Below, piece after piece: positions 20,112 through 63,218 of a DNA stretch of 64,000 nt (the first letter of the stretch is position 1; every line of letters starts with the position of its first letter). The notes below the pieces were generated by a model, which saw only the letters and a program-made list of their open reading frames with translations, was not told the origin of the DNA and did not search any database. The stretch lies in assembly GCA_032622095.1 (NCBI GenBank), contig CP136063.1:74811980-74875979 (forward strand), given 5' to 3'. Both the position numbers and the translations under genes were made by a program. This DNA is from Siphonodentalium dalli. Lineage: Eukaryota; Mollusca; Scaphopoda; Gadilida; Siphonodentaliidae.

Positions 20112-20485
20112 ACCCTTTACCCAACAGAACGGCCCTGTTCCAATGCATTCTCTTATATATGCGAGTCGACCATATAAAATTGTTAAAAAATGTAAGAAAA
20201 AATTGTAAAATTGTTAAAGAATGTAAGAAAAAATGGTAAAAAGTGTTTTAAAAAGATTTTTTTTAGGCCAATGCATTCTCTTATATATGCGAGGCGACAT
20301 ATGTTCGACTCGCATATATAAGAGAATGCATTGGCACAGGGCATAACTGTAACCATCACAATGTGGTCAATGAACCGGTTCCAATGATATCCATATTTGT
20401 ATGGTGTTATTGAGACAGACCGAAGATATTTTAGGCTGTTGAAGCTTTATTTGGGCGTTTTTGGCCGCTTTGTTGGGTAAAGGGT
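20112..20485 (-). mobile_element. TA-duplicating palindrome-bearing MITE, subfamily I (ACCCTTTACCC)
   Basis: Inverted ends ACCCTTTACCCAACA at both sides, flanked by TA (20110-20111, 20486-20487). It contains one full 69-bp palindrome (20267-20335), a half palindrome (20140-20176) and an AT-rich spacer rich in 'ttgttaaa-aatgtaag'. The unique block 'ccggttccaatgatatcca' is shared, in reverse, with the copies at 49157-49614 and 53597-54079. Non-coding. Confidence 0.85.
20267..20335. repeat. 69-bp palindrome
   Basis: Arms GCCAATGCATTCTCTTATAT.. pair across a centre near 20301 (tatgcgag-gcgacat/atgttcga-ctcgcata). One of nine full palindromes of the same wording in the window. Confidence 0.92.
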
Positions 20486-20761
20486 TAAATAATAAGTCCC
20501 CCAAAAAGACTAAATTATACAAATGTATAGTTACAGCGCTATTGCGCACATACCCAACATTAGTCATCACTTCTGGAGATGTTGGATGGGTGGTTATAAA
20601 GGCTTCCCGTTAGTAGGAAACTGGTGTACATTAAACAGGCACAATAAAGCTTGTTACTAATAGCAAATTCTTGATTGTGAGAAGTAACTTCTGATTCCGT
20701 CACTGATTCCTTAACCCTTTCAGTGCCAGGTCCGATTTTTGTATCAACCCATATACCCTGT

Positions 20762-20830
20762 GCCAATGCATTCTCGTATATATGCGAGTCGACCATAGGT
20801 CGTCTCACATATATAAGAGAATGCATTGGC
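20762..20830. repeat. 69-bp palindrome
   Basis: Same wording as 20267-20335, with one arm change (tctcgtata) and one stem change (cacatata). Confidence 0.9.
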
Positions 20831-21023
20831 CTAACAATTTTTCATCATTTGTTATTATTTTTTACAATTTTTTACAATGTTAATAATTTTTTTCTTATAT
20901 TCTTTAACAGACTTATTTTGTAGGTTTAGTGCCAGGGAATCTTACGTTTTTCATGGGCATCAAAATTATTACTATGAATACTTGGTGATAGTTTTGAGTT
21001 ATAACATGCCCCTAATGTTTTAA

Positions 21024-21514
21024 AGGCACGTGAGGCCTTAGTTGTCGAAAATATGAATATTTGTTCCAATTACCGTAAACATAAAAACATTAAAACGCAT
21101 ACAGTTTCGTTCATATATACCATGACCATCGCGTAAACAGCATGTTATCATAAAGATTTACTATATTTTATCTAAGCAAGAGCCTGATTGTGTTACAGAA
21201 GACAACACAATGCTGCTGGCTAATCACACACAAATGGCATAAACGCTCTTTATTCGTTCCATATCAGGAATTCACCCACAAAGAACGCTCTTTATGTTTA
21301 CCATCATAATATAAACAAACACAAGAAAAGTAACTTTTTATGCTTTTGTTTTCATAACAATGGTCAAAAATATGACAATAACATACTGTTTATGCGATAT
21401 TTCTTATTTGTATACGGACAAAGTCTGTCTACATTTTGTTCTTTCTGTTTGTGGCGGTTTTTGACGGGTGGAAATATTTTCACAGGATACCCACCGCCAA
21501 GGCCAACCGTACCT
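21024..21514. mobile_element. 491-bp MITE with TTAA target duplication, nested
   Basis: Ends AGGCACGTGAGGCCTT and, inverted, AGGTACGGTTGGCCTT. TTAA lies on both sides (21020-21023, 21515-21518). The unoccupied version is in the related element at 26331-26763 ('aaggttttatccag'). Internal wording ('ttacagaag', 'aacgctcttta') is shared with 21997-22516. TTAA duplication is known for piggyBac and Kolobok groups; which applies is not decidable here. Confidence 0.8.
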
Positions 21515-21792
21515 TTAACCAGTTTGTTTTTAAATTCGCTATAGCATGCTTAAGCATACCCAAAACAAATTCAACCCCAAAAAAAAAATCGAAAATATTT
21601 GTTTTCTTTTTAGGGCCGATTTTACAGACCGTAAATTAGGGCCGATGAGATCGGACCCTGGCACTGAACGGGTTAATGAATTTAACAATGCGCAATACAT
21701 TCATCGAAACAAGTGGAAGTTTGACGACATTTCATGTTGGCTAATCTTTCTGCGCAGTAATTGGGCATATGCTAGTGCATGTATAACTGTAT

Positions 21793-22952
21793 TGTGCGTG
21801 TTAACTGTTTCTCACTGTCGAATATTATATATGAAAACAATTGCTTATGTCATATCAATTTCCCAGCCATATTAACATTTGAATAGTGAGACACGTTTTA
21901 TGTGGTCCATGCATAGCAGGATATATATTAACAAAACGAACTTTATTGTTCAATGTTGAATAGTCAGGAAATGATTTTTCTTAATTAGTCGTTCTGGGGC
22001 ACGGGCGGCGTTCGTTGAAGAAAAATTCATATTTGTTCAAATCGCCACCAACAGAAGGAATGTTAATATATATATATAGTTTTGTTTATATGCCAAACAT
22101 AATCAGCGCGTAAATAGTATATTGTCGTCAAGACGTACGGTGGTGTACGTAAACAAGAACCTGCTCGTGTTACAGAAGTTTTGCTTCTGTTTGCATAACA
22201 CAGCGCAATTATATTGGTTAATGGCACACGAATTATATAAACGCTCTTTATTATTTCCATATCAGGAAAACTAACAAATAACGCTCGTTATGTTTACCAT
22301 AGCCGGATCTAAACAAAAGCCAGGTTCTGTAACGTTTTTTGCTTTTGTTTACATAACAAAGGAAAAACATTTGACAATAACATACTGTATATGCCATATT
22401 TCTGATTGGTATAAGAACAAGGTCTGTCTATATTTTACTATTCTTTCTGTTTATGGTGGTTTTTGACGGAGGTGAATATGTTCACAGCATGCCCACCGCC
22501 AACGCCGCCCGTATCTTTAAAGTCCGTACATAAACATTCGACCTATTTATTGACATATGTTAAGTCGTGAACAGGACCGGATAAGGTCGCGATATGAGCT
22601 TAATGCCAGGATTCAACTTGCCACCTGACTCAATAAGTCACAAAAACTAAATTGTACAAATGTATAGTTATAACGCTATTGCATACATACCCAACATTAG
22701 TCATCACTTCTGGAGCTGTTGGATGGGTGTTTACAGAGGTTTCCTGTTAGTAGGAAACTGGTGTACATTAAACAGGCACAAGAAAGCTTGTTACTAATAG
22801 CAAATTTTGATTGTGAGAAGTAACTTCTGATTCAGTAATGAATTTAGCAAACGCGCAATATATTTATCGAAACAAGTGGAAGTTTGACGACATTTTATGT
22901 TGGCTAATCTTTTGCACAGTAATGGGGTATATGCTATTATTCCTGGATTGCG
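21793..22952 (+). repeat. tandem unit B of the 20-27 kb array
   Basis: Starts 'ttaactgtttctcactgtcg' and ends 'attcctggattgcg', where the hAT-like element begins. It lacks both TA-duplicating elements found in unit A and so supplies their empty sites near 22630 and 22835. It carries its own insertion at 21997-22516. Confidence 0.82.
21997..22516. mobile_element. ~520-bp relative of the TTAA-flanked MITE
   Basis: Left end GGCACGGGCGGCGTT and right end, inverted, AGATACGGGCGGCGTT. TTAA follows on the right (22517-22520). On the left the target copy is lost, as judged from unit C, which reads 'tgtgggacTTAAagtccg' uninterrupted near 26208-26222. The interior aligns with 21024-21514 ('aacataatcagcgcgtaaa', 'ttacagaag', 'gacaataacatactgt'). 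Confidence 0.75.
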
Positions 22953-23754
22953 CAAGGGGTGGAAGAATGTTTTTTCCGGGCACGTATGCCTGGGTGGGTG
23001 GGTGGTCGATAGGGCCAACAAACAATTTTTATTTTGACTGTTTTCGCAATGAGTTTGGCTTAAAACACATCTATCTGTCAATATTAACATAAATGACAAA
23101 TTTCATGATGATCAGACAAACAGTATAGCCTGTAGCCCATGCTAATGGATTGAATTTTGAAATCCAAGATGGCTGCTGGCAGCCATATTTTTTTGACCGA
23201 ATGACCCCAAAATGATTCATTCCTATTTACATGTCATTGTTAACATCCATGACTAATAGTATGTACAGAAATTCATATACAGCTGTTTACAGTGAATTTC
23301 CCCCCGAAAATCTCTGTTTTAGTGATACAAGACAGTCAAAGACTGTGGGGTCGCCCACCAGACTGCAAAGACTGATAAGACTGGGACTTTGGAGACCACA
23401 ACAGTCAGAACTTTTCATAATCACTTTAAAAGAAGTAAATCTAAACAGGATATGTGGCTAGAGAACCTTCATGAAAGTAGATCAGTGAATATCAAATTAC
23501 CAAATCTACAAAATCTACCTTTAAATTACCAAATCTAACTTGAAATTACCAACTGTACATTAGTGATCACCCCTCCTCCAGCTCAAGAAGTCCCCTCTCG
23601 CCCGGGGCCCAGACTCCCAAGTCTTAGGTTGAAATTTCACAACCGATATCTCAAACTATCTCAATTGTTGGAAATTTTCAATCTCAATAGCGCTTTATAT
23701 AAAACCATTTAGACATGTTTAAAGCCCAATTATCCATGGACCCAAAAACACTAT

Positions 23755-24401
23755 GGTGACACTCCACAGTTTCTGCAGGGATTGGTGCAAAAATAAGGGG
23801 GGCATCAATTCAATAAAAAATAACTGAAATGTGATCCCACAACACATATACAATGTATATATACCTGGGTTGAACACATACTAGGCTTAAAGATTTTGGT
23901 ACAGAATTGTCATTTTAATGGGGGTAGCAAGAGTTATGCCCCTTGATTGTGTGCCTGAAAAATGAAATTTTGATGCAAAAATGGACAAAATAAGCGTATT
24001 TCAGGCCCGTGGGACACACAAACCAGAAAATCTATGGCATAGCCGCCTATGTTGTCGGGAAGAACACTATTTCCTCACAATAATATCAAAAAAATTCAAA
24101 CTTCTCATCACTGTAATTTTTTTTTAAATATTTTTCATGCAGATGACAAATTTTAGGTGCTAAAACGTCACGCTGGTGTCTGGAGCCACTGTTTCGCAGA
24201 AATCGCTACTACTTCATACTGGTGGGGTCAAGGTCACCTGAAACAATATTTTTCAAAACTCAAAGACATCCTCTAAAAATCCACAAATTCATAACTAACC
24301 TTCTCTCAATAAACATACCACAGCCATGGTGACAGAAAACACTGGTACTCTATTCTAAGAAATTTACCCCTACTGATCATTCGAAACTGTGGAGTGTCAC
24401 C
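23755..24401. mobile_element. 647-bp MITE with TAT target duplication
   Basis: Perfect 19-bp inverted ends GGTGACACTCCACAGTTTC. Flanks are TAT (23752-23754) and TAT (24402-24404). The paralogous copy at 44862 reads 'cacTATatgtatg' with no insertion, proving the boundaries. A 3-bp duplication is seen in PIF/Harbinger and a few other groups; the internal sequence has no transposase frame. Confidence 0.9.
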
Positions 24402-25180: not shown

Positions 25181-25195
25181 CCCCCCCCCCCCCCC
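25181..25195 (+). repeat. poly(C) run
   Basis: Fifteen C residues; the same place in copy 2 (near 45624) has a similar run. Confidence 0.9.
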
Positions 25196-25769
25196 AACAC
25201 TGTGGGGACATCCCTGTGAGAATATGACATACAACATTTATTTGACTACATTAGCTTAACAAAATTCCCATGACCTAGAGAGCAAGTGCATCCTGAGAAT
25301 TATATTCCATTCATGAAACCATCAGCTACCATTGTCTGAGAGGTGTTGACATAGATTATTAGGTTTTAACGACTGCACACACAGCTTTTTGATACTCCTA
25401 CAGCTGTGATCAAAACAAGGATTTTAATGGGGTGAACAAGGAAGAGATAACATGGTATGATACAGTGTGGTGTGGTAGGGGCAGGAGGTGGGTTGGGGAG
25501 GGTGGGGTTGGATAGCTGTGATATGTCTAAAAAAATCAAAGGTCAAAATGCAAAAATGTTATTATTTTTTTTAGAGCTATGTCCCTGGCTCTGCCCCTAT
25601 TTGACCCAGTGACCCCATTTGACCAAATCTGAACCCCAGTCACCCAATGTCTCTCTGTACCAAATATAAGCTAAATCGGCCACATATTGTTTTAGAAGAA
25701 GTCATTGTAAGAATTACTATGAGTTATGGCCCTGGTTTCGGTTTCAGAGGAGAAGATGTTCAAAGAATT

Positions 25770-25818
25770 GTTGACGGACGGACGGATGGACGGATGGACG
25801 GACGGACGACGGACGAGG
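25770..25818 (+). repeat. GACG-rich simple repeat
   Basis: gacggacggacggatggacgg-type units next to the terminal hairpin of the Helitron-like element; the same array ends copy 2 (46460-46502) and copy 3 (near 42555-42596). Confidence 0.9.
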
Positions 25819-26330
25819 AGTGATGACTATAGCTCCACCGGAGACTTCGTCTCAGGTGAGCTAAAAATGGGGTGGGTGTCAAAAAATGGTCGGAAAAAAC
25901 TGCCGAAAACGGAAAACAAATTTGGACGCGGGGGTCGAACGTCGAACGTCAAAAATTAGCATACGTGCCTGAAAAAAAATTCCGACTCCCCCCCTGGATT
26001 GCGAGTTTTAACTGTTTCTCACTGTCGAATACGATATATGAAAACAATTGCTAATGTCATATAAGTTCCCAGCCGTTTTTAATTTTGAATAGGGAGACAA
26101 ATTTGTATGTGTACCATATCAGGAATATATATATATATACTAACAAAACGCTCTTTATTATTCCATGCTGAATAGGCGGGAAACGATTTTCTTAATAAGT
26201 CTTTCTGTGGGACTTAAAGTCCGTACATAAATATTTGACCTATTTATTGACTTATTTTTATGTCAAGAACAGGACGGGGAAGGTAGCAATATGAGCTTAA
26301 TGTCAGGCTTCAACCGGCCACCGGACTTTA

Positions 26331-26763
26331 ACCCTTTCATTGCCAGTGGCCGATCTCATCGGCCCTAATTTACGGTCTGTAAAATCTTTTTTAAAAGATT
26401 TTTTTGGGTTGAATTTTTTTTGGGTATGCTTAAGCATGCTATAGCAAATTTAAAAACAAACTGGATAAAACCTTAGGGGCATGTTATAACTCAAAACTAT
26501 CACCAAGTATTCATAGTAATAATTTTGATGCCCATGAAAAACGTAAGATTCCCTGGCACTAAACCTACAAAATAAGTCTGTTAAAGAATATAAGAAAACA
26601 TTATTAAAATTGTAAAAAATAATAACAAATGATGAAAAATTGTTAGGCCAATGCATTCTCTTATATATGCGAGGCGACATATGGTCGACTCGCATATATA
26701 AGAGAATGCATTGGCACAGGGTATATGGGTTGATACAAAAATCGGACCTGGCACTGAAAGGGT
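26331..26763 (-). mobile_element. palindrome-bearing MITE, subfamily II, uninterrupted copy
   Basis: Ends ACCCTTTCATTGCCA and, inverted, ACCCTTTCAGTGCCAGGTCC; TA flanks (26329-26330, 26764-26765). Collinear in reverse with 20714-21673 but without the TTAA element. Palindrome at 26647-26715. It occupies the same site of unit C that the subfamily I element 20112-20485 occupies in unit A. Confidence 0.88.
26647..26715. repeat. 69-bp palindrome
   Basis: Arms fully complementary from gccaatgcattctcttatat inward, centre near 26681 (gcgacat/atggtcg). Confidence 0.93.
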
Positions 26764-27090
26764 TAAATAATAAGTCCCAAAAACTAAATTGTACAAATGT
26801 ATAGTTATAACTCTAGTACATACCCAACATTATTCATCACTTCTGGAGCTGTTGGATGGGTGTTTACAAAGGTTTCCCGTTAGTAGCGAAGCTGGTGTAC
26901 ATTAAACAGGCTCGCGAAAGGTTATTACTGATAGCAAATTCTTGATTGCGAGAAGTAACTTCTGATTCAGTAATGAACAACGCGCAATAAATTTATCGAA
27001 ACAAGTGGAAGTTTGACGTTGTCTCATTTAGTTAATCTTTCTGTGTAGTAATAGGGCATATGCTATTATTCCTGTTCTGTGCTTCTTACT

Positions 27091-28165
27091 TGTTTCCCAC
27101 GGCCGTATCTGACCCCTGTGTTAAAAACGTTATAGGTGCTGCATATTATCATGATTTGAAGGGGCGTGTATAGCTAGGATACTATTCAGTAGGTTTTTAA
27201 AGCGCCTTCTCATTTCATTGTACCGTTTGGTATGCCCATTTTTATATGTACACTAAATAAGGCTATTTATGGGAGCAACAAATGAATGAATTTGAGCCGT
27301 GCATTAGTCAAAATACACCCATGTGCTCTATGAACGATGTAAACAGCATGTTAATTATAATGAATATGACTTAAAGACGAGCAATAAACTCATTTTCATT
27401 TCGATTAACACTCAAGAAGCAAAGTAATTATCATGAAAATGTAGCAGATAGCCTGGGATCGACAACAGAATCGCGCGCTTTTTGGAATGATATCAATTAA
27501 CTTAAACTAAGAGGGAAACCCCAAATCAGACTTGTCTGATGCAATACATTCCGATGAATTGGTCAGCTATTTCAAAAGCATCATGGGTAGAACTTCGAAT
27601 ATCGAAAACTCTAACGTCAAGGTAGATGATTCCAAACAAGATCTTGATTTCGAAATTAAAGACAGTTAACATCCGGTTTTGTTATTCGCCGCCGAAACGA
27701 AATGAGATATCATTCTGTCAATCGTAAGACGATTTATGCACCGTGACGTCATTCAGCAGGGATTGCACATGAGCTACTGATAGCGGTGGTAATTATACAT
27801 CTATAGCCGTACACGCCTATTCTGGTAGAATTAACTAGGATACATATTAATACTTGTGTATACATGTAGTTTAAAGCGGCGGTAATGTAATTCCCAACAA
27901 TTTTCTTTAGACCCTGTAACGATGTAGCTTGTAGTAGCTCAGGTGAATTGATGTATGTGCCTCTAAATAAGAAATAATGGACAATCAGCGGTTAACTATT
28001 TATTCATAAATGCGATATGTGAAACGAAACAAAAACAATTCACATGAGTTTACAAATATACGTCGATATATTAACACGAACATGGTGGCCTAGAGTCCGA
28101 CACTGAACACAATAAAGTGTCGGAGTTACTCTTAAAGAGTAACGGTTGATCCATACTTATTATGT
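27091..28165. other. no recognisable feature
   Basis: No domain-bearing frame, hairpin or shared repeat noticed. Confidence 0.4.
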
Positions 28166-31328: not shown

Positions 31329-31485
31329 ACCCTTTCAGTGCCAAGTCTGATTTTTGTATCAACCCATATTTCCTTGATCATTTTTCAAATTTATTGATTA
31401 TAATAATATGATACATTGATGGAAAGAGCTCTAAGATCAAGGAAATATAGGTTGATACAAAAATCGGACTTGGCACTGAAAGGGT
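31329..31485. mobile_element. 157-bp palindromic MITE related to subfamily II
   Basis: Ends ACCCTTTCAGTGCCAAGTCT mirrored at the right, with arms of about 55 bp through 'gtatcaacccatatttcctt-gatc'. TA at the left (31327-31328), tg at the right (probably a mutated TA). It lacks the 69-bp palindrome. A half copy is at 52905-52987. Confidence 0.85.
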
Positions 31486-31489
31486 GAAG

Positions 31490-31805: not shown

Positions 31806-32679
31806 AGGAGAATTTGGCATCCAAATTTTACAACCTCGAAATAATGGTCTGAGGTCATTTGAACATTTATATCTGCTCAACATATACCATGCATGGGGGC
31901 GAGAATCACAATGAGCGGATATTGATATAGCACAAGTGTTATCGTTTTTGGTTGAGTTATTTACATACTAGTAGATGAAGAAAACGATGTAAACTCACTT
32001 CGATGTGAGGCATATTGCTGCCATTTTCGAGCACATGATGAATTAGGTTCCCGGCCCTGTCATTGATATTCACTGAGCGCATGCGTGGCCAGAACAGTGA
32101 ATCACCAGCAAAATAATTAAAATTTTGAGAACACAGAAACCCAATAGGTGAACATAAAAGTATAGTTGACATTAGTCATTAGTTCGTTCACGAATATGTG
32201 GGCGTTAGATATAAGATGACAAGCGATATGTTACATATGCTATAAAATCAACACAACTGAAGCGTTGTTTCAACCTTTGATACCATTTTGATATTTAAAC
32301 ATGCAATTTTATTTTTATTATTATTTCGACCGAACCAAACCTTTAGAGGAAAACAACCGCTTACCAAGTGTTTATAAACATATAAGTCATAAGGTCATGG
32401 TGTACTGTTCTGCGATTAAAAATCACTGTTTCAGCGAAAACAAGTCTTATACTGACAGCCGCCGCCCAGTATACTAGTACTCCAATTCGTTTTCACTATC
32501 CAGTGTTTACGATCGCAAAACAAAAGCTAAATTTGCTCCATTCTACTCACAATTACATGGCCATCTAAGGTTAATTTGCATCTTTATACCATGTGAATTC
32601 ATGTTGTTAGCATACCCCGAACTTGCCACATATTGCCAAACTATCCGAATTATGAGATTATTTGCAAGACAGGCTCCAG
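31806..32679. other. no recognisable feature
   Basis: No supported gene or repeat; a 71-codon minus-strand frame (31957-32172) has no signature. Confidence 0.4.
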
Positions 32680-32747
32680 TCTCTTTGAAAAGCCGACGAA
32701 AATCCTATATCGGAATTACGTCTCTAGAACTCTCAGTTATGCCCTGT

Positions 32748-32816
32748 GCCAATGCATTCTCTTATATATGCGAGTCGACCATAGGTCGCCTCGCATATAT
32801 AAGAGAATGCATTGGC
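32748..32816. repeat. 69-bp palindrome
   Basis: Same wording as 20267-20335; near-perfect arms. Confidence 0.93.
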
Positions 32817-32871
32817 CTAAAAAATTTTTTTTTTACATTCTTTAACAATTTTATAATTTTTAATGTGTTAA

Positions 32872-32940
32872 GCCAATGCATTCTCTTATATATGCGAGGC
32901 GATCTATGGTCGACTCGCATATATAAGAGAATACATTGGC
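32872..32940. repeat. 69-bp palindrome
   Basis: Second palindrome of the same element, opposite in the order of its gtcgac/gcgatc centre. Confidence 0.92.
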
Positions 32941-33202
32941 ACAGGGCCGTTCTGTTGGGTAAAGGGTTAATGGTTCCATGTTTCATTTCTACGACGACGC
33001 GGCATTCCCGACATGACGTAATAAGCCGTTTCCAAATATGGAGTGCATTCATGTCGTAGTAAATGTTTATGAAAACTAGACGCGAAAGAATAATCAGTCA
33101 TGACTGTCCTTGACGGATAACAAACTCGAAGATGATGTCTCCTATATTTCGATGAGTAAAATTAATTATGGATATCTCTCCTGTATTCAGTTCTCCAACA
33201 AT

Positions 33203-33208: not shown

Positions 33209-33488
33209 ATAGTTGAGTTTGACAATGCGCAGGGAAATTGTCTACACGTCATTGACCTCTGATCTCTGACGTGATCAGCTATGTCATAAACCAATGAAAT
33301 CGCGCGCAGTCTGCGCCACTGTCCAATGAAATGGAGGGAATCCCTTCAATACAGAACATAATTTTAATAAAGAGTTCCAGTGACGTAATTCCGATATAGG
33401 ATTTTCGTCGGCTTTTCAAAGAGGCTCTTGTCCGCAAAAGTTTACGCTGAAAGTGTCACTCCCATTAAAAATGCACGTGATCTGCAGG

Positions 33489-45600: not shown

Positions 45601-47886
45601 TCATTGAACAAATCTGTCAGTCACCCCCCCCCCCCCAACACTGTGGGGACATCCCTGTGAGAATATGACATACAACATTTATTTGACTACATTAGCTTAA
45701 CAAAATTCCCATGACCTTGAGAGCAAGTGCATCCTGAGAATTATATTCCATTCATGAAACCATCAGCTACCAGTATCTGAGAGGTGTTGACATAGATTAT
45801 TAGGTTTTAACGACTGCACACACATCTTTTTGATACTCCTACAGCTGTGATCAAAACAAGGATTTTAATGGGCTGAACAAGGAAGAGATAACATGGTATG
45901 ATACAGTGTGGTGTGGCAGGGACAGGAGGTGGGGTGGGGGAGGGTGGGGTTGGGTAGCTGTGATATGTCTAAAAAAAATCAAAGGTCAAAATGCAAAAAA
46001 AATATTATTTTTAGTTATGTCCCTGGCTCTGCCCCTATTTGACCCAGTGACCCCATTTGACCAAATCTGAACCCCAGTCACCCAAGGTTTCTCTGTACCA
46101 ATATAAGCTAAATCGGCCAAATATTGTTTTAGAAGAAGTCATTGTAAGAATTACTATGAGTTATGGCCCTGGTTTCTCAACTAATTGACCGGGTGACCTC
46201 ATTTGAAAAAATCTGAACACCAGTCACCCAAGGACCCTCCATACCAAATATTAGCTAAATCGGCCCAATGGTTCTGAAAAAGAAGTCGTTGTAAGAATTA
46301 CTATGGAGGAATAGAGTTATGGCCCTGGCTTCGCAACTATTTGACCCAGTGACCTCATTTGAACGAATATGAATGAGAGTCACATAGGGAACATCCACAC
46401 CAAATATGAATCAATTCGGTCTTCCGGTTTCAGAGGAGAAGATGTTCAAATAATTGTTGACGGACGGACGGATGGACGGATGGACGGACGGACGACGGAC
46501 GAGGAGTGATGACTATAGCTCCACCGGAGACTTCGTCTCAGGTGAGCTAAAAAGTACCGTTTATTTTGTTAGTTTGGCTTTTTGGCGGTGTTCCGATCTA
46601 TAATCTGAACATATACAGGAAAAGCAATTATGCGTATTAAACATTCAAAAACATATTTATTGCGAAACATTTTTAATACTGGTTGTATTAGTTGTTGAAA
46701 ATCGACTATAATCAAGATGGTTATTCACGTCGTTTCAGAAACACCAGCGCAGCCATTATTATATTTTATTGAATGTTTCATACACACACTGGTTTTTTCT
46801 CAAGCCAAACACCACGAAAATGACAACTTTAGAAAAACAATAACGGTACTTTTTCGTAACGGCATCAGTTTGCCCTACCCGCATCATAGCAATTCAGCAG
46901 GATCACCAGCATCATAGCATATTAGCAGGACCACTTGGCCAGGGGTGTATACCGCGTGGTGCTACCCAATCGCGACCTCGTGCGTGACCTATATCGGCAA
47001 ACTACCGAAGTTTTGCCTAATAAAATTGACTCGATGTTCAAGCGGTTGAGTAACGAGTATTCCACAATGAAAAACCAGGATATTTGTTTCGGACTCAATC
47101 AATTCGATGATTAAAGTGTTAATAACAATAACTGAACTCAGAGCACTATGGATCTAACGATAAGCGTTTCGATATGTTTAACCCTTCCATGACTGGAGCT
47201 TCCTGAAATTTTGCGAAACCCTTATGCCAAAGCATTTATATATGCGAGTCCCCCATAGGTTGTCCAGCAATTTCACTTGCAAAGTTGAGTAGAAAGTTTA
47301 GTCAATTCGTCAGCTGCTTTTACTGAACACTTTAGTCATGCAGCGTTGATAAGTTTGGAGCTATATTGTATAATCACACCGGTGTTGAGTAAAATATTTT
47401 TCAACGAGATGTTCAGCGTAGCTATGTATTTATTTACCTTGGATACGTGAGTGCATGGCTGATAACGACAGCTTCTCGGTTCTCGCCAGTGAGTTCCTTC
47501 GCCTCCCTCAGAATAGATTCTGCCAGGTGGGCGAAATCGAATTTGGTATGCTTTTCGCCATTCCATGTCTGACTTGTCCGTTGGTTCTGATCCTTTGTGC
47601 ATGAGTCTTTCGGAACATCCGGCTTAAGTTTATTGGTGAACACTGAACGGGAAGAATGGTGAAACGAATGAATGATCGACGACCTCATGAGTCCTGTTTT
47701 CTCGAATATCGAACATGGTGTTAAGTCGATGTTGATCGAATTGAATACGAGCAGTGGATACAGCGGCCTGATGTCACACGTGTGTGGTAAATCTCCATGG
47801 AAACCAGGCGATGTTGGCATCTCAACTTCACGAAGTCTGTTGTCCAATCCGTAATGCGTTCCCGGAAGACACAGCGACGTTGTCAT
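33489..47886 (-). CDS. odd: odd-skipped / OSR-type C2H2 zinc-finger transcription factor (three exons)
   Basis: A nuclear DNA-binding regulator. Odd-skipped family members act in embryonic patterning and in gut, limb-joint and kidney development. Spliced coding order: 47886-47438, 35118-34963, 33642-33489. Joined length is 759 nt, giving 252 residues plus stop, close to vertebrate OSR1 at about 266. An N-terminal motif [12 protein letters not shown] lies near residues 114-125, recalling the family's FDFANLA-type motif. Three fingers follow: C157-C160-H173-H177 ([19 protein letters not shown]), C185-C188-H201-H205 ([11 protein letters not shown]) and C213-C216-H229-H233 ([11 protein letters not shown]). 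The linker THTDERPY and these helices are diagnostic of the family. The tail is short (19 residues after the last His). Introns have GT..AG ends: 35119-47437 (12.3 kb, full of transposons) and 33643-34962 (1.3 kb). All key residues are present, so the gene looks functional. Whether it is the odd, sob or bowl type cannot be told from one locus. Confidence 0.96.
33643..34962 (-). other. odd: odd-skipped intron 2 (1,320 bp)
   Basis: Donor cacag|gtaag, acceptor ttcag|ata. It contains a small hairpin (34721-34784) that resembles 54585-54650. Otherwise no feature is seen. Confidence 0.93.
34721..34784. repeat. 64-bp hairpin (MITE-like)
   Basis: 'gaaatgttcagataacaatt' with 'aattattatct-aacatttc'-type mirrored arms; the same wording is at 54585-54650 ('gaaatgttcagacaataagt'). 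Confidence 0.7.
34963..35118 (-). CDS. odd: odd-skipped exon 2: fingers 1 and 2
   Basis: Acceptor ..atattccag|gtcaaag, donor ..gatcacag|gtaag. The 156 bases encode [20 protein letters not shown]-type finger 1 and [18 protein letters not shown] of finger 2. The intron after H201-R splits finger 2 just before its last His. Confidence 0.96.
36012..36187. mobile_element. 176-bp palindromic MITE with TA duplication
   Basis: Ends CAGTAATGCCCTAATTAATT and mirror, TA on both sides (36010-36011, 36188-36189). Arms continue through 'ctttaaccacagcagaatta' and 'cccataattctgctgtggtt' to 'tcaggattta'. The centre is 'gagagctttccgatgaatgg-caacaagcc'. A larger relative is at 43581-43786. Confidence 0.92.
36966..37931 (-). 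pseudogene. LINE ORF2, RT catalytic box to C-terminus
   Basis: Opens after the stop inside GVPQG and carries [24 protein letters not shown] (second and third catalytic Asp), [38 protein letters not shown] and the C-terminal domain up to the stop at 36966. Confidence 0.9.
38075..39751 (-). pseudogene. LINE ORF2, longest intact part (endonuclease to first RT Asp motif)
   Basis: More than 540 codons open in one frame, including the endonuclease C-terminal SDH motif and RT motifs up to [18 protein letters not shown], then a stop where other elements have Lys. It is in frame with the 40108-39755 part, separated from it only by one stop codon. Confidence 0.9.
40109..40429. other. possible 5' untranslated region of the LINE; otherwise nothing
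   Basis: Non-coding AT-rich sequence upstream (on the minus strand) of the first LINE codon. I could not find a matching target duplication with the 36605 end, so the element's true 5' limit is unknown. Confidence 0.4.
40430..41243 (-). mobile_element. tRNA-derived SINE interrupted by a hAT-like element
   Basis: On the minus strand from 41243: GCCCCTCGGTGGCTCAATCG-GTTAGGAG, a tRNA head with box A (TGGCTCAATCGGTTAGGAG), then 'tcactccaagccgttttgcc-ctctagctc'. After the insert 40627-41176 it resumes at 40619 with 'tggcgataagGGTTCACATCC', a box B. The body continues and ends near 40430 with 'ggatttcctccaccactaat', wording of a kind common in conserved SINE bodies. Removing the insert plus one GAGCTAG copy gives a normal box A to box B distance, confirming both the SINE and the insertion. 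Confidence 0.78.
40627..41176. mobile_element. hAT-like element D2 (550 bp)
   Basis: Starts CAGGGGG.., ends ..CCCCCTG, flanked by GAGCTAG (40620-40626, 41177-41183). Subterminal 'ttccggcacgtatgcc' at the left mirrors 'atacgtgcctgaattttttt' at the right. The interior has 'gaaatccaagatggccgctg' and 'ttcatatacagctgtttaca', as in D1. A duplication of 7 bp by strict reading (8 with one mismatch) and CAGGG ends suggest a hAT derivative. Non-coding. Confidence 0.82.
41244..41664. other. no recognisable feature
   Basis: Intronic, unique-looking DNA without supported features. Confidence 0.4.
41665..41775. mobile_element. 111-bp hairpin MITE
   Basis: Arms caagccttcaaatagggtgt and 'ctgtcatttgca' are mirrored at the right ('tgcaaatgacag', 'acaccctatttcaaggcttg'). 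The middle is 'gaatgaggtccccagagggt'. Diverged relatives are at 28800-29155. Confidence 0.85.
41776..42169. other. no recognisable feature
   Basis: Intronic AT-rich sequence with nothing identifiable. Confidence 0.4.
42170..42642 (+). mobile_element. Helitron-like element, 5'-truncated copy 3
   Basis: Shares 'gagttatgtccctggctctg-ccc', 'tttgaacaaatctgaatgtg-agtcac', the GACG-rich run and the terminal hairpin 'ctccaccggagacttcgtct-caggtgagctaa' with copies 1 and 2. The left limit is approximate. Confidence 0.82.
42643..42790 (+). repeat. dispersed G-rich repeat
   Basis: 'gtgggtcccaaattttgcc', 'ggcaagtaggggg' and 'ggtgggtac.ttgagg' recur at 51548-51640. Class unknown. Confidence 0.6.
42791..43580. 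other. no recognisable feature
   Basis: Intronic AT-rich sequence without supported features. Confidence 0.4.
43581..43786. mobile_element. 206-bp palindromic MITE with TA duplication, longer form
   Basis: Same ends as 36012-36187 (CAGTAATGCCCTAAATAATC, mirror at the right) with TA flanks (43579-43580, 43787-43788). Its centre holds both arms of an inner hairpin ('ggcttgttgccattcatcgg-aaagctctca' and 'tgagagctttcagatgaatg'), of which the shorter copy keeps only one. Confidence 0.92.
43789..44344. other. no recognisable feature
   Basis: Overlapping frames of 60-79 codons on both strands (43896-44179) have no family signature. Confidence 0.4.
44436..46550 (+). mobile_element. Helitron-like non-autonomous element, copy 2 (2.1 kb)
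   Basis: Collinear with 23327-25864 at very high identity by eye, which suggests recent spread or gene conversion. It lacks the 647-bp MITE (clean empty site at 44862) and keeps a 260-bp stretch deleted in copy 1 (about 46178-46436). It ends in the same hairpin and CTAA. It sits inside intron 1 of the odd-skipped gene. Confidence 0.82.
46508..46550 (+). repeat. terminal hairpin of the Helitron-like element
   Basis: tagctc.acc.gagac-TTC-gtctc.ggt.gagcta: nested arms with two single-base bulges and a 3-base loop, directly followed by A. The same structure ends copies 1 (about 25828-25864) and 3 (about 42606-42642). Confidence 0.88.
47179..47263 (+). mobile_element. left half of a palindrome MITE, subfamily III
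   Basis: ACCCTTCCATGACTGGAGCT followed by 'tcctgaaattttgc' and a degraded half palindrome ('agcatttatatatgcgag'). The right half is missing. The complete relative is at 62842-63072. Confidence 0.75.
47438..47886 (-). CDS. odd: odd-skipped exon 1: N-terminal domain
   Basis: ATG at 47886-47884 (context atcATGa), 149 codons plus two bases, donor ..ccaag|gtaaat. The encoded part has few conserved motifs apart from [11 protein letters not shown] near its end, matching the short motif that precedes the fingers in OSR proteins. Upstream, 'tgttaattcattctgcag' at about 47935-47918 looks like a splice acceptor, so a non-coding first exon further right is possible. The plus-strand frames over this exon are shadows. 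Confidence 0.88.
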
Positions 47887-49156: not shown

Positions 49157-49306
49157 ACCCTTTACCCAACAAAACGGCCAAAACCGCCCAAATAAAGCTT
49201 CAACATCCTAAAATATCTTTGGTCTGTCTCAATAACACCATACAAATATGGATATCATTGGAACCGGTTCATTGACCACATTGTGATGGTTACAGTTATG
49301 CCCTGT

Positions 49307-49375
49307 GCCAATGCATTCTCTTATATATGTGAGTCGACCATAGGTCGCCTCGCATATATAAGAGAATGCATTGGC
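49307..49375. repeat. 69-bp palindrome
   Basis: One arm mismatch (tatgtgag for tatgcgag); otherwise complementary. Confidence 0.92.
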
Positions 49376-49518
49376 CTAAACAAATTCTTTTTTAACACTT
49401 TTTACCATTTTTTCTTACATTCTTTAACAATTTTATAATTTTTTCTTACATTTTTTAACAATTTTTATAATATTTTTCTACATTCTTTGAGAATTTTATC
49501 ATTTTTAATATGTGTTAA

Positions 49519-49587
49519 GTCAATGCATTCTCTTATATATGCGAGGCGACCTATGGTCGACTCGCATATATAAGAGAATGCATTGGC
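49519..49587. repeat. 69-bp palindrome
   Basis: First bases gt instead of gc; the rest is complementary. Confidence 0.9.
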
Positions 49588-49614
49588 ACAGGACCGTTAT
49601 GTTGGGTAAAGGGT

Positions 49615-52365: not shown

Positions 52366-52904
52366 AGCAGCGAGGTAATTCAAGTATTTATTGACCTAGA
52401 TACCGGGACAATTCAAAAGCGAATATTAAAAGGTGCATTTTGGAGCGAAAAAAACGCCAAGTGGCTTTAAATGGGTGAAATTGACAATTTGTAGCAACTG
52501 TCGGATCAGAAAAACAGGGACACATTTAGATACGATGTGTAACCAAAAAAAAACAGCGTTAACTATTCATTTTGTCATAAAATGTTAATAATAAAAGCGC
52601 GTCTATAAATGAAGAAAAGTATTCTTAACACTTTGTCGCTTCGGAATAGATTTTCAGAGAATATAGAATATATTTATCGACCTATCCACGGAAATTTAAT
52701 GAAATCGACTAATTACTATACGTATAAATTTAAACTTGAAAACTGTCGCAGCTTCGACTTGATGATATTCCATAATTGACATTATCGACTTCTTTACTAC
52801 ACACGATAACAGAGAAGTGGTTGCTAAAAAAAATGAGTACAGACTTGGAAGAAACAGAAAAGTGTTCAGTGCGAAGTCCGATCTAAGAGCTATTTCCATC
52901 AATG
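52366..52904. other. no recognisable feature
   Basis: AT-rich; a 68-codon minus-strand frame has no signature. Confidence 0.4.
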
Positions 52905-52987
52905 TATCACATTATTATAATCAATAAATATGAAAAATGATCAAGGAAATATGGGTTGATACAAAAATCGGACTTGGCACTGAAAGG
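52905..52987 (+). mobile_element. right half of the 157-bp palindromic MITE
   Basis: 'gatcaaggaaatatgggttg', 'atacaaaaatcggacttggc' and 'actgaaagg' match the right arm of 31329-31485; the left arm and final gt are absent. Confidence 0.8.
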
Positions 52988-53596
52988 ACCAGAAGAGAAT
53001 TTTGCTCATGCATTATATTATAAACTAACATATCGATACCTGGAAAATGAATCGTTCAAGAGTCACCGTAATACTCCAAGTTGTAAATAATTTGAGACAG
53101 ATTTCTAACATGTATACTCCATGTGGATTAATTGTGTTTTGAATTTAGATATGTTAAGTTCCGCGACAATATATATTGGGCAGTAGAGACTATTAAAGAC
53201 TGCTAATTCCGCCCCATATATACCGCGGACCCACCCACCGAGATCGGTGCACGCTGCTAACACAGCGCACCTGACAGCCACGATAGTGATTTATAAGGTT
53301 TTGAGGAGTTTCGAACCTAATCCTGACAAATTGTGTTTGTATTACTGACGGTAAACATTGCAGCGGGACAGTTGACAGAATTGAGGCGATATGCCCTGTA
53401 TTTCGGTAGGTGTGGTGTGTCAGTCACTGACCTGCCATGGAGTAAAAATTGAGAGGGAACTCTGCAATATCGAGTGTATGGTAACCCATCCTCACATTCC
53501 AGTTCCATATGCTACCGTAATAACCGTAATCTAATTTTAATAACTTTTTATACTGGAACTCTAATGCGATTAAACTATTGCCTTGACGGTGCCTTA
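52988..53596. other. no recognisable feature
   Basis: No supported gene or shared repeat noticed. Confidence 0.4.
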
Positions 53597-53746
53597 ACCC
53601 TTTACCCAACAAAACGGCCAAAAACGCCCAAATAAAGATTCAACAGCCTAAATTATCTTCGGTCTGTCTCAATAACACCATACAAATATGGATATCATTG
53701 GAACCGGTTCATTGACCACATTGTGATGGTTACGGTTATGCCCTGT

Positions 53747-53815
53747 GCCAATGCATTCTCTTATATATGCGAGTCGACCACAGGTCGCCTCGCATATATA
53801 AGAGAATGCATTGGC
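53747..53815. repeat. 69-bp palindrome
   Basis: Near-perfect; centre gaccacaggtc. Confidence 0.92.
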
Positions 53816-53979
53816 CTAAAAAAAAATCTTGTTTAACACTTTACCATTTTTTCTTACATTCTTTAACAATTTTATAATTTTTTATTTAATTTTTTTAACA
53901 ATTTTTATAATATTTTATAATTTATATAATATTTTTCTACATTCTTTGACAATTTTTTATCATTTTTAATATGTGTTAA

Positions 53980-54052
53980 GCGAATGCATTCTCTTATATA
54001 TACGAGGCGACCTATGGTCGACTCGCATATATATATAAGAGAATGCATTGGC
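53980..54052. repeat. 73-bp palindrome (expanded)
   Basis: As above, with a 4-bp expansion of the TA stretch in the right arm and gcgaatg at the left edge. Confidence 0.88.
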
Positions 54053-54124
54053 ACATGGCCGTTCTGTTGGGTAAAGGGTTAATCTTTGACTTTTGCATCG
54101 GCATAAAATCTTAACCCTTCCTCT

Positions 54125-57637: not shown

Positions 57638-57777
57638 GTTACAGGGCTCGTTGTTGCCGGCTACGGTGACATATGAGGCTCAGCGAGATTAATATTGGGC
57701 TCGGCTAGCGCCTCGCCCGATATTAATCTCACTTCGCCTCATATGACACCGTATCCGGCAACAACCAGCCCTGTAAC
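57638..57777. mobile_element. 140-bp hairpin MITE
   Basis: 'gttacagggctcgttgttgc-cgg', 'gtgacatatgaggc' and 'gagattaatattgggc' are mirrored ('gcccgatattaatctc', 'gcctcatatgacac', 'ccggcaacaaccagccctgt-aac') around 'tcggctagcgcc'. Confidence 0.87.
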
Positions 57778-59097: not shown

Positions 59098-59215
59098 GGT
59101 GACTAAATATAGTTCAGGCGATATGTAAAAATAGGTCCACAAAGTACCATCCTTGTGGCAGTGCTATACCGCAGTGATAACGTATAGAGGGCGCTGCATG
59201 GAGTTTGGTCTCGCT
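59098..59215 (+). repeat. dispersed repeat Y, copy 2
   Basis: Matches 14208-14345 in the same orientation with about 20 bases fewer. Confidence 0.7.
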
Positions 59216-59849
59216 CACTCATGACATAATTTCATATATCAACTCAAAACCCTAGATATCCTCTATGTATTCAGGGTTCAACTCAGTGCTACATTTTGAC
59301 AGCAACTACAAAATGTGTGTATATTATATATAAGCACTCGAATTCAGCCATAGTTGAAATATTTTAATACTGTGACTTATAGGGGCGTCTGACATACCGC
59401 CTCGCGGCCACCGCCAACACACAAAGTACCTAAAACTTGTTAATAATGCACGGTGGTTATGTGCACATGCCTCGCCAAAGTGGCAATCACTGTGATCCTC
59501 ATGTCGTGCCATACCCCCTTTTTCTAACGGCACTGGAATGCGCATGTCACATAGAGGTTATACCAGCGGCGAACCTGTGGATGACAAATTGTTTATGAGA
59601 GTTTCTGGATTATTTAGGCCACGCAAATAGTATACCTGGTTTACGAACATTTGGGGAGTGAAGAAAGTAGATGTAAGGAGGGGGCGGGTAATTGAAAAAA
59701 ATATTCATCGCCGTGCACCCACCCCTACAATCGACAAACAGAGAAACTAAACATGAAGTTTAAAATATTTGTTTTGAAAATATGATTTATTCAAATTATA
59801 AAAATAAAATGAGTTACAAATGTAAGTTTGGAGACAGTGCAATTTTTTT
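59216..59849. other. no recognisable feature
   Basis: No supported feature; the 73-codon minus-strand frame has no signature. Confidence 0.4.
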
Positions 59850-59955
59850 GGGGATTATTTGTCACTTCGGTTGCTGTGTGGTATTGACGTCGGACTTTGA
59901 GTCGCAAGACCCGCTCGCCGTCAAAGGCAGGTGTTCGAATCCCACCCAATCCCAA
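59850..59955 (+). other. tRNA-like relic (possible SINE head)
   Basis: 'gttgctgtgtggtattgac' resembles a box A and 'gtgttcgaatccc' a box B about 60 bases later. The outer GGGATT can pair with AATCCC as an acceptor stem. The T stem and anticodon arm do not pair properly, so this is not a working tRNA. A tRNA-derived SINE remnant is the likeliest reading. Confidence 0.4.
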
Positions 59956-60799
59956 AAACAATTGGACTGTCTCAAAACTTACATTTTGCTTCTAAAAATG
60001 GGCGTCTTGTGTGTTGTATAGTTCCAGACATGTTCAAAGAACAATGCTTGGCATGTTTCGGAGACGTATATATAACATGATACTGTGCCATATCTGCTAA
60101 ATATAGCCTAAAAGGAGTTATTTCGTCCCATAAAACATTAGAAATAATGCATGGGAAAAAGAGAATATTAGCTTCGAATATTAGACAACATGATTATACG
60201 CCAAGCAGTAAATATTTATTTTTATTATTTTTAGGGGGAGGGGAGGGGAAAGATTCGTAAACAAGTTTATTAAATTGCTGTTTCCTTCATTACTTACTCA
60301 GAATGACATGCAGATACAAAGAGAGATTCTTGATCCGTGTGTCACGTGTATGGACGTGGGCGCTCAGCATCACCATCAGAAGTGAACATTATTAGTTTAA
60401 CCCACCAAGAGCTAATTTAGGTCAGTGTAGTGACAAAAGTACTAACTTGTGCAAGGCGGAACTTGACCAGATAGACGGGTTAAAGGTAAACACGGCACTC
60501 GCAGTTAGTATAAGTCTGCAAGACATATATATTCAATTCTGTTAAAACATCACCACTATGGAGAAATAGATAAACTTTTATATTACATTCATTATTGATT
60601 GTTCCCCAATGACGACAGTTCGCGTATTGAAACCATAGGTTTTTTAATTAAATTATTCTGTTTTTAAATCAAAATTATGAATATCTAATGCCGTTGTAAC
60701 ATCCGTCAGGGAACCTCGAGTCAACAAATTTGGTTGAAATCGGTCCAGGGGTCTGGGAGAAATATCGCGAACATACAGACGGACAGAAAGACATATCCT
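59956..60799. other. no gene recognised; SINE/LINE-tail-like motif at the end
   Basis: 60728-60798 ('ttggttgaaatcggtccagg', 'gagaaatatcgcgaacatac', 'agacggacagaaagaca') is wording seen at ends of dispersed invertebrate repeats. The rest is unremarkable. Confidence 0.45.
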
Positions 60800-61849
60800 A
60801 TACTCTTGCATATATCATATTACAAAAGAGATCCGCACACAATATTTCACAACTTATATCCACCACTCTCCCATTAATTAACATTTACGTAAATACAACA
60901 TTGACGCATTTGAACGAATTGGGACGGTCGTCATTTTGGATCAACCAGTGGGCCCCCGAAACAAAGAAATTCAATAGAGCAATAACAGAAAGACTACACG
61001 ACATATTTATTCAAGAATGGAGGGGTTCTATATCATCGTCCAGCAAATACGGATTCTACAGAATAGTAAAAACTAACTTTGGCAAAGAACCGTACATCCT
61101 ATCCAGGAATCAATGCACCGTCTCACGATTAGTGAAATTTAGAACGAGAAATCATCATTTACCAATTGAAACGGGTTCCTGGACAAACACAGAGTATACC
61201 GACCGTAAATGCAAGCTATGTGACCTGGAAATAGGAGACGAATTCCACATTATCCTTAAATATCAAAAATTGAATGATATCAGGAAGAGACACATCGAAC
61301 CATACTACTATTTCAGGCCAAACACGATGAAACTGAACGCACTTTTCAACACTAAGAAAGGTAGAATATTGGCCCATTTGACTCTCTTTATCCAAAAAGC
61401 CCTCAAATTTTGCCAGGAACACCCTGGGGCTTAACTATGGGCCAAGCTGAACAATCCTACAATATGGACATACTATATATCCCCAACCCCTCCCTATGGA
61501 TACACCACTCCTCATGTGGTACCACTCTAGATTTTGCCCCTGATTTCAAAATGAAACTTCATTGGAACCACAATCCCTCACCCCACCCTATGATACAACA
61601 CCCACCCCTAGTAATTTTCATGCGGCTTTACTCTAGATTTCGCCAATTCTGCTAAAGGAAACCTCATTAGAACCACCATAACACCACGCCACAATTCCCA
61701 CTGAAATTACATAGCTACTCCCACCCCTCCCACAACTCGCGCATGCGTCACGTATTTTATGTATTACCATATTCTGTATTATATAGCTTCAACATCATAA
61801 TATTCATGATAACTTTAACTAATAAAATCGTATCGTATCGTATCAATAT
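60800..61849 (+). mobile_element. 5'-truncated non-LTR retrotransposon fragment with (ATCGT)n tail
   Basis: The open frame to 61434 encodes the C-terminal part of a LINE polyprotein: SSSKYGFYRIVKTNFGKEPY, RLVKFRTRNHHLPIETGSW and a zinc-knuckle region CKLCDLEIGDEFHIILKY, in which the expected fourth ligand Cys is Tyr. Then come RPNTMKLNALF and a stop. About 400 bases of 3' region follow and end in 'aatcgtatcgtatcgtatc' (61827-61846), the microsatellite-like tail. The RT core is absent. It is a different family from the 36-40 kb element by C-terminal wording. The Met near 60730 is outside the element. Confidence 0.82.
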
Positions 61850-62470
61850 ATCATCAGGGACAGGACCGATGTGCAACAATAATTTCCAACTTGAAACCAC
61901 TTCATCCAAACCATTTAAAATGCCAGAAGAATTTCAGAATACATGTATCTCAAACGATTTTCCGATAATAATAATTATTCAGTTGATGACATGAACATGT
62001 TCTACACGTAACTATGACAATTATCTCCGAACTTGGTTGAGACATTACCACGCGTCCACAGAGTCCGTTGGCCATAGCATGTGTGTTGCATTTACATGTT
62101 TGCGTTTGTGCCACCATACTACTCATATAATAGCCAAAAGTAACAACAACAAAAACACGTGGCTAATTGGTTTCCGTTGGGGGTGTTCTCCTTCGAATTT
62201 CCAACTGCCCCCCCCCCCCGCCCTTTAAACTAGACCGAAATATGTAAATCCTGGAACTCCATTTGCACCTCACTTTTGGGTTGAAGATTTCCAACTGCTG
62301 GAAATTTCCAACCTATAATTCCCTATAAGGTTGGAATTGTTTTTGCAACTTGTGGGTGGTCATTTTACTCCAAAAAAAATGACCTAAAGTGGGTAATTAT
62401 TCGAAAAGAACAAATTCCACACTAAATTCTGGTTCGAAAAAGAACATTATGAACTTAGTTTAGTCTGAAA
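61850..62470. other. no recognisable feature
   Basis: Poly(C) near 62210; 'atttccaactg' is repeated near 62199 and 62287. No gene is seen. Confidence 0.4.
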
Positions 62471-63218
62471 TTAGATCATGCCAAGAGTGCCTACTCTGGC
62501 TACGCCGTATGGATCATTTTTACCACCCGTTCAAAACATGGGAGTTGATGTTCTGCATGACCGTGGTTATGACATTGAACAAACAACGCGGGTAATATAT
62601 ATATTTCTTTCTCAATACGTGTTCCGTAATAATCAGTTTTACAATAGGGAATGGGTTAAGCTCGCGATTGCATGATTTTGTGACTTTTGTGAGCCAATAT
62701 CACAATAAACATTGAATTGATTAACCGGGAAATATTCCATGATTATAAGCGACGCAAAGTAAAACAGGCTATAACACAAAGTCGCGCAAATCATATAACC
62801 TCGAACTGGGACTTTCACCAATACTGTGAAATCCGTTAGTAACCCTTTCATGGCGACAGCTGCGCTGGTGCAGCATTAATGGTCCTGAGCCAGTGCATTA
62901 TCTTATATATGCGAGTCTCAAATAGGGATCTTCGCATATGCAAGAGAATGCACTCGCTTATAAGATCGAGATAAATATTGTTAGGCCAATGCATGCATTC
63001 CCTTATAATATGCGAGGCTCCCTATGCACAGGGTTTTTGCAAAATTTCAGGAAGCTCCAGCTATGGAAGGGTTAAGGAGCAGGAACATGTGTTAACTAAG
63101 AAATATATTACAATGTACCTACATGTACATTGTATTTTCCATGTTAAAACTATATCAGAAAATCAAAAAGTTCCCAGATTTTGAACTGGTGGTGTGTGAT
63201 CTCCACGGGCGTAATCCA
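62471..63218. mobile_element. foldback element interrupted by a palindrome MITE
   Basis: 'tagatcatgccaagagtgcc' to 'atctccacgggcgtaatcca', collinear with 17279-17790. The homology is broken exactly at 'gttagTA' and resumes at 'TAaggagcagg'. Other copies read 'attatTAaggaacag' there, so the 231-bp insert 62842-63072 duplicated TA. Confidence 0.85.
62842..63072. mobile_element. palindrome MITE, subfamily III (231 bp)
   Basis: Left end ACCCTTTCATGGCGACAGCT; right end inverted ACCCTTCCATAGCTGGAGCT-TCCTGAAATTTTGC; TA on both sides. It contains two decayed palindromes ('gtgcattatcttatatatgc'..'gcatatgcaagagaatgcac', and a half with 'atgcgaggctccctatgc'). Confidence 0.87.

What the first reader, a model, noticed from the sequence alone, without database searches (positions are those of the whole stretch)
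20112..63072. A 69-bp near-perfect palindrome shared by MITE subfamilies with different ends
Nine full palindromes and one half copy, all with arms GCCAATGCATTCTCTTATAT.., sit inside elements whose ends agree only in the first six or seven bases: ACCCTTTACCCAACA (20112, 32734, 49157, 53597) and ACCCTTTCAGTGCCA (20714, 26331). Decayed versions sit in ACCCTTYCATRG-ended elements (47179, 62842). Subfamily I carries two palindromes per element, subfamily II one. The arms are better preserved than the surrounding AT-rich spacers, including both halves of the pairing. This looks like a module exchanged between element types or kept by selection, for example transposase or replication binding, extrusion, or small-RNA precursor. 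Selection is inference; the sharing is directly visible.
Basis: partly seen in the sequence, partly recalled or inferred. Interest (0 to 1): 0.8.

Follow-up and report, generated by a model that had tools for sequence, protein, structure and literature searches.

The report
Shared palindrome in TTAA mini-transposons
Several kinds of small, gene-less jumping DNA in one genome carry different tips but the same roughly 80-base hairpin-capable block just inside them; a similar pattern has been reported in corals, and the block is most likely a handle for the piggyBac-type enzyme that moves them.

Summary
Nine full palindromes (eight of 69 bp, one of 73), one half copy and three decayed units lie in CCCTT-tipped elements, mostly at TTAA: non-autonomous piggyBac-type elements. 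The shared block is wider than reported: CCCTGT + palindrome + CYTAA (about 80 bp). One stem mismatch is kept in 9 of 9 full copies. On one side of the A elements, homology with B runs on into the AT-rich spacer.

The A and B ends are unrelated beyond CCCTTT. Two B-type elements lack the palindrome, and the element at 32734 has no left tip.

'Better preserved' is half right. Between families A and B there are 0 fixed differences in 75 sites, against 11 in 61 spacer sites. Within families the palindrome changes as fast as ordinary end DNA. That fits constraint on active lineages, or past exchange, not protection of individual copies.

Three paralogous host repeats show A1 and B2 at the same TTAA in two copies, and a third copy empty.

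Closest precedent: coral CMITEs, piggyBac-type MITEs with different TIRs and a conserved interior (PMC2872659). The preferred mechanism, a subterminal transposase-binding or synapsis site, is inference: no transposase was found and no genome was available.

The parts
20113..20484 (-). Element A1 (A tips CCCTTTACCCAACA), flanks CTAA/TTAA; one full and one half palindrome
20267..20335 (-). full palindrome of A1 (P1 unit, long-end side)
20139..20174 (+). half palindrome of A1: outer arm plus loop, broken exactly at the end of the ATA loop (consensus position 36)
20715..21672 (+). Element B1 (tip CCCTTTCAGTGCCA), flanks TTAA/TTAA; one palindrome near the left end
20762..20830 (+). palindrome of B1
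26332..26762 (-). Element B2, flanks TTAA/TTAA; one palindrome; sits at the same TTAA of a paralogous host repeat as A1
26647..26715 (-). palindrome of B2
32734..32966 (+). Element A2, left end missing, right A tip and TTAA present; two palindromes
32748..32816 (+). palindrome P1 of A2 (identical to the consensus)
32872..32940 (-). palindrome P2 of A2
49158..49613 (+). Element A3, flanks TTAA/TTAA; two palindromes in inverted orientation
49307..49375 (+). palindrome P1 of A3
49519..49587 (-). palindrome P2 of A3
53598..54078 (+). Element A4, flanks TTAA/TTAA; two palindromes
53747..53815 (+). palindrome P1 of A4
53980..54052 (-). palindrome P2 of A4, 73 bp because of an inserted TATA
62843..63071 (+). 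Element C1 (decayed), flanks GTAA/TTAA, two different ends; two decayed units
62889..62957 (+). decayed full-length palindrome C1a (14 of 69 differ from the consensus), 3 pairs changed on both sides, stem mismatch kept
62986..63025 (-). partial unit C1b: inner arm and loop, joined directly to CACAGGG (outer arm deleted)
47182..47268 (+). Element C2, left tip and partial decayed palindrome only (from 47226)
31330..31484 (+). Element B3: B tips (41 bp shared with B1/B2) on both ends, no palindrome
52862..52989 (-). decayed B3-like element with altered tips, no palindrome, no TTAA
22501..22990 (+). host repeat copy Z without A1/B2 and without B1 at the corresponding sites

Best explanation
These are non-autonomous piggyBac-superfamily elements. 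Shown: CCCTT tips, mostly TTAA flanks, and an about 80-bp subterminal unit, CCCTGT + 69-bp imperfect palindrome + CYTAA, with a fixed polarity and a fixed stem mismatch, placed behind different tips. Inferred: the unit is a docking or synapsis site bound as a dyad by the C-terminal domains of the piggyBac-type transposase (or a shared partner protein). It persisted, or was reused, while the outermost 26-149 bp changed from family to family. Constraint acts on the lineages that keep moving; once inserted, each copy decays neutrally, which is why the palindrome is conserved between families but not within them.
For: Tips and TTAA flanks. Paralogous host repeat, 81-83% identical, filled with A1 and B1 in copy X, with B2 in copy Y, empty in copy Z. 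Shared polarity: the outer arm has T opposite C at consensus position 28/42 in 8 of 9 full copies (T opposite T in B1) and also in C1a, so the arms have not been fully homogenised. 0/75 fixed A/B differences in CCCTGT + palindrome against 11/61 in the P1-side spacer, P = 8.6e-5. Three pairs changed on both sides in C1a; 7 of 500 shuffles reach that. Within-family rate equals ordinary end DNA (4/207 against 7/429). Known biology: the piggyBac CRD dimer binds a 19-bp palindromic internal repeat at bp 17-33 of the left end (PMC7351741, passages); piggyBat binds imperfect palindromes repeated to about bp 120, and its subterminal copies modulate activity (PMC11707139, passages).
Against: B3 and the decayed copy at 52.9 kb have B tips and no palindrome, so it is not needed for every B-type element. 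The palindrome is far longer than a 12-19 bp CRD site, and the tip-to-palindrome distance is not constant: 26, 44, 46, 47 and 149 bp. B1 against B2 shows 4/69 changes in the palindrome and 0/48 in the adjacent end. All three two-sided changes come from one decayed copy, in which the other eight of 14 changes are not compensated. One of the five inner CYTAA sites is a fixed A/B difference and was left out of the Fisher test. The spacer contains tandem repeats, so its divergence may be inflated by slippage and misalignment.
Confidence: 0.47

Rival explanations
1. Neutral chimerism: A and B share the block because an end of one element was rebuilt from, or recombined with, the other (abortive gap repair, template switching or gene conversion between neighbouring copies). 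The palindrome has no function and is shared only because the exchange was recent.
For: A/B homology includes part of the spacer on the P1 side (5 of 5 comparisons: no shuffle of 500 reaches the observed score), so it is a stretch of descent, not a motif alone. No slower decay within families. A1 and B2 sit at the same TTAA in paralogous repeats and alone share the change G37T in the palindrome: about 1% for that given pair, about 24% expected for any pair among eight copies (my arithmetic from the counts).
Against: The spacer next to the palindrome has diverged (11/61 fixed) while the palindrome has not (0/75), so one recent exchange tract would have to stop close to the palindrome edge. Three to four end types (A, B, C, C1-left) carry the unit in the same orientation, CCCTGT outward.
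Confidence: 0.33
2. The palindrome unit is a separate small mobile element that inserted repeatedly into piggyBac-type elements.
For: It begins with CCCTGT, resembling a piggyBac-type CC[C/T]T tip, and in A elements the two units form long inverted repeats around the spacer. Nested insertion creating new elements is described for coral CMITE-IN (PMC2872659, discussion section read).
Against: No solo copy elsewhere in the window; always the same orientation to the tip and always subterminal; no TTAA or other duplication at its edges (outer neighbours TATG, ACGG, TATA).
Confidence: 0.08
3. The hairpin acts as RNA: transcripts fold into a 32-pair stem that is diced into small RNAs, and the stem is kept for that.
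For: RNA fold -54.3 kcal/mol on either strand for the A2 P1 copy, z about -14.
Against: Any near-perfect palindrome folds so. The loop is 3 nt, unlike typical miRNA precursors (recalled). No Rfam family reached its gathering score in the window. No small-RNA data here.
Confidence: 0.05

Closest known systems
CMITE families of Acropora corals (PMC2872659: abstract, first of two parts of the Results and the Discussion read)
   Same: piggyBac-type MITEs with TTAA duplications and CCCTTT-like tips (CMITE family VI CCCTTTCACTGCCA resembles the B tip CCCTTTCAGTGCCA); different TIRs around an internal region that is more conserved between families than the TIRs; its authors also suggest a role of the interior in transposition.
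   Different: CMITEs are about 100 bp with a 75-base internal region; the words palindrom and hairpin do not occur in that paper. Here elements are 155-958 bp where both ends can be read, the shared unit is a long palindrome placed subterminally, and A elements carry it at both ends. The CMITE internal sequence is in a figure and could not be compared.
[quoted passage not shown]
   Same: TTAA target; a palindromic repeat just inside the tip, bound by a dimer of C-terminal cysteine-rich domains.
   Different: 17-19 bp at bp 17-33 there; 69 bp starting 26-149 bp from the tip here. Sequence identity with that site was not tested; the shared string CGCAT (site TGACGCATG in the paper, CTCGCATAT here) is only a lead.
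piggyBat (Myotis lucifugus) ends (PMC11707139, passages)
   Same: Imperfect palindromes repeated in the subterminal region to about bp 120; subterminal sites modulate activity.
   Different: Short imperfect palindromes of unrelated sequence, only on the left end.

Membership tests
piggyBac-superfamily non-autonomous element (MITE) | TTAA target-site duplication | tested here: met
   Of 10 elements: 4 exact on both sides, 3 with one mismatch on one side, 2 readable on one side only (TTAA), 1 decayed without
piggyBac-superfamily non-autonomous element (MITE) | terminal CC[C/T]T motif (as stated in PMC2872659) | tested here: met
   CCCTT at 15 of 16 ends readable in nine elements, one CCCGT (B1 right); the decayed tenth element lacks it
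piggyBac-superfamily non-autonomous element (MITE) | matching 12-19 bp TIRs | tested here: met
   A1, A3, A4: first 14 bases identical at both ends, 20-22 of 24 alike; B2: 16 of 24; C1 ends 15 of 24 only
piggyBac-superfamily non-autonomous element (MITE) | mobilised by a piggyBac transposase in the same genome | not testable with these tools
   No genome held. Of 15 ORFs of 120 aa or more, 10 were scanned against Pfam; only RVT_1 and Exo_endo_phos_2 were found
piggyBac-superfamily non-autonomous element (MITE) | insertion into an intact TTAA, seen against an empty site | tested here: inconclusive
   Paralogous copies lack the elements, but with small length differences at the junctions: Z lacks the TTAA at the A1/B2 site, and Y and Z lack 12 bp at the B1 site
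CMITE | about 100 bp length with the CMITE 75-base internal region | tested here: not met
   Elements readable at both ends are 155-958 bp (229 bp for C1); the internal sequence itself could not be compared
piggyBac CRD-binding palindrome | bound by a transposase CRD dimer | not testable with these tools
   No transposase in hand
miRNA or known structured RNA | match to an Rfam family | tested here: not met
   0 matches at gathering score in the window

The most novel reading that the evidence does not exclude
Swappable-tip transposons: one conserved palindromic synapsis module works with several unrelated piggyBac-type tips, so tip recognition and end pairing are separable cis functions. Elements gain access to new transposases by changing only the outermost 26-149 bp while keeping the module.
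Probability: 0.22. Interest if true: 0.7.

Novelty: new variant of a known kind. Interest (0 to 1): 0.45.

Why it matters
If the palindrome is a synapsis module shared by elements with unrelated tips, it would separate what the transposase cuts (tip) from what it uses to hold the ends (subterminal dyad), and would explain how gene-less elements switch between piggyBac-type helpers. The coral CMITE paper left the role of a conserved interior open; here the conserved part is short, defined to the base and directly testable.

Tried and rejected
The species was not identified. tRNAs 0, Rfam 0.

Considered and rejected or demoted: selection on each copy (the palindrome is not slower within families); an independent mobile palindrome (no solo copies in the window); B and C ends as recognisable relatives (the mid-end parts are no better than shuffles; the tips CCCTTTCAGTGCC, CCCTTTCATGGCG and CCCTTCCATAGCT look graded, but that was not significant by this test). 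P2-side spacer of A against B gives no homology (171 and 229 of 500 shuffles do as well).

Rows left out before counts: the within-family test used A1, A3, A4 (A2 lacks the long end). The A/B Fisher test used the P1 side of A1, A3, A4 and B1, B2, not A2 or the P2 units, and not the 5 CYTAA sites (1 fixed difference). The 73-bp unit was left out of the substitution list and counted.
Full report
WHAT IS THERE. A nucleotide profile built from the nine full units finds those nine, a half unit at 20132, a decayed full-length unit at 62883, and partial decayed units at 47221 and 62979-63026. The best hit outside these elements has E = 0.46. An independent scan for hairpins lists eight of the nine palindromes, the ninth (73 bp, inserted TATA) falling below its settings, and two unrelated palindromes at 34721 and 43648.

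ELEMENTS. Removing the A that belongs to the target site, the tips are CCCTTTACCCAACA (A1-A4), CCCTTTCAGTGCCA (B1-B3), CCCTTCCATRRCTGG (C2, C1 right) and CCCTTTCATGGCGAC (C1 left). Of ten elements, four are flanked by exact TTAA on both sides (A3, A4, B1, B2), three have one mismatch on one side (A1, B3, C1), two can be read on one side only (A2, C2) and the decayed one at 52.9 kb has neither tip nor TTAA. TTAA duplication plus a CC[C/T]T tip is the stated hallmark of piggyBac elements (PMC2872659).

THE SHARED UNIT. Read from the tip inwards it is CCCTGT, then 69 bp of palindrome with a 3-nt loop, then CYTAA. The outer neighbours differ (TATG, ACGG, TATA). All nine full copies keep an unpaired T at consensus position 28, opposite C in eight and T in B1; C1a keeps T opposite C as well. 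So the unit has a polarity, CCCTGT always towards the nearer tip, and its two arms have not been fully homogenised. In A elements two units face each other; in B1 and B2 there is one. On the P1 side of A the homology with B continues into the spacer (5 of 5 comparisons, 0 of 500 dinucleotide shuffles as good); on the P2 side it does not (171 and 229 of 500).

ENDS. The distance from tip to palindrome is 26 bp (A short end, four), 149 (A long end, three), 47 (B, two), 46 (C1 left), 44 (C2, C1 right). With tip and CCCTGT removed, A-short against B is no better than shuffles (954 of 1000 as good), nor is B against C1 right, C2 or C1 left (260, 514, 580 of 1000); C1 right against C2 is clearly related (0 of 1000). 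B3 and the decayed 52.9-kb copy share 39-41 bp of B end with B1/B2 but have no palindrome. So the same unit sits behind at least three unrelated ends, and one of those ends also occurs without it.

RATES. Within A (A1, A3, A4) the palindrome differs from the majority at 4 of 207 sites and the 143-bp non-palindromic end at 7 of 429 (Fisher P = 0.75). B1 and B2 differ at 4 of 69 palindrome sites, 0 of 48 outer sites, and 4 of 68 spacer sites plus 11 gap columns. So once inserted, copies are not protected. Between A and B, CCCTGT + palindrome has 0 of 75 fixed differences and the first part of the spacer 11 of 61, with 23 gap columns set aside; P = 8.6e-5. One of the five CYTAA sites is fixed different and was not in that test. 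The spacer is about 85% AT and contains tandem repeats, so slippage may inflate its divergence. The contrast is what a site needed by moving lineages would give, but recent exchange of the block would give part of it too.

PAIRING. On 13 units, 94.5% of pair cells are standard pairs and three pairs are changed on both sides; 7 of 500 shuffles reach three. All three lie in the decayed C1a, which has 14 differences from the consensus, eight of them outside those pairs. The changes seen in the A and B copies are not matched by a partner change. A1's half unit matches the consensus up to position 36, the end of the loop, and C1b has lost the outer arm from loop to base. Such arm losses are expected where hairpins form (inference from two cases; the third partial copy, C2, continues past the loop). 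Folding energies: DNA -35.4, RNA -54.3 kcal/mol for the consensus copy.

A NATURAL EXPERIMENT. Flanks of A1, B2 and B1 match a host repeat present three times, 81-83% identical: copy X (19981-21850) holds A1 and B1, copy Y (26196-27140) holds B2, copy Z (22501-22990) holds none. A1 and B2 occupy the same TTAA, with the palindrome in the same orientation. The joined copies contain 7, 6 and 4 TTAA, so two independent hits on one site are not improbable. A1 and B2 also alone share the palindrome change G37T, a weak hint of local exchange. Z has lost the TTAA at that site, and Y and Z lack 12 bp at the B1 site, so the empty copies are not perfect pre-insertion states.

MECHANISM. piggyBac's C-terminal CRD dimer binds a 19-bp palindromic internal repeat just inside the tip (PMC7351741, passages), and piggyBat has repeated imperfect palindromes in its left end whose subterminal copies restrain activity (PMC11707139, passages). 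A subterminal palindrome behind a piggyBac-type tip is therefore most simply a transposase docking or synapsis site. This step is inference. Against it stand the palindrome-free B3, the length of the palindrome and the variable distance to the tip.

NOVELTY. Coral CMITEs already show piggyBac-type MITEs with different TIRs around a conserved interior (PMC2872659; the second part of its Results was not read). In that paper the words palindrom and hairpin do not occur. Ten searches of an open-access library listed no other paper with this pattern; only listings were seen for most, and subscription papers and Repbase are not covered. I rate it a new variant of a known kind.

Noticed in passing
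19981-21850, 22501-22990, 26196-27140: A host repeat in three copies (81-83% identical): two carry TTAA elements at the same site, one is empty.
   Followed up: yes
36966-40117 (-): Non-LTR retrotransposon remains: ORFs matching RVT_1 and, weakly, Exo_endo_phos_2; another RVT_1 fragment at 16081-16707 (-).
   Followed up: partly
36010-36189: Another element-like inverted repeat: 68-nt arms, 99% complementary, 44 nt apart.
   Followed up: no
25736-25867 and 46422-46553: A 132-bp stretch 98.5% identical at two places, containing a GACG microsatellite.
   Followed up: no
43648-43714: An unrelated near-perfect palindrome of 67 bp, arms 33 nt.
   Followed up: no
20913-20930: Inside B1 (and B2) a string GTTTAGTGCCAGGGAAT resembles the B tip, perhaps an older internal end.
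   Followed up: no
32678-32733 and 33371-33426: A 56-nt inverted repeat whose left arm ends exactly where the truncated element A2 begins.
   Followed up: partly
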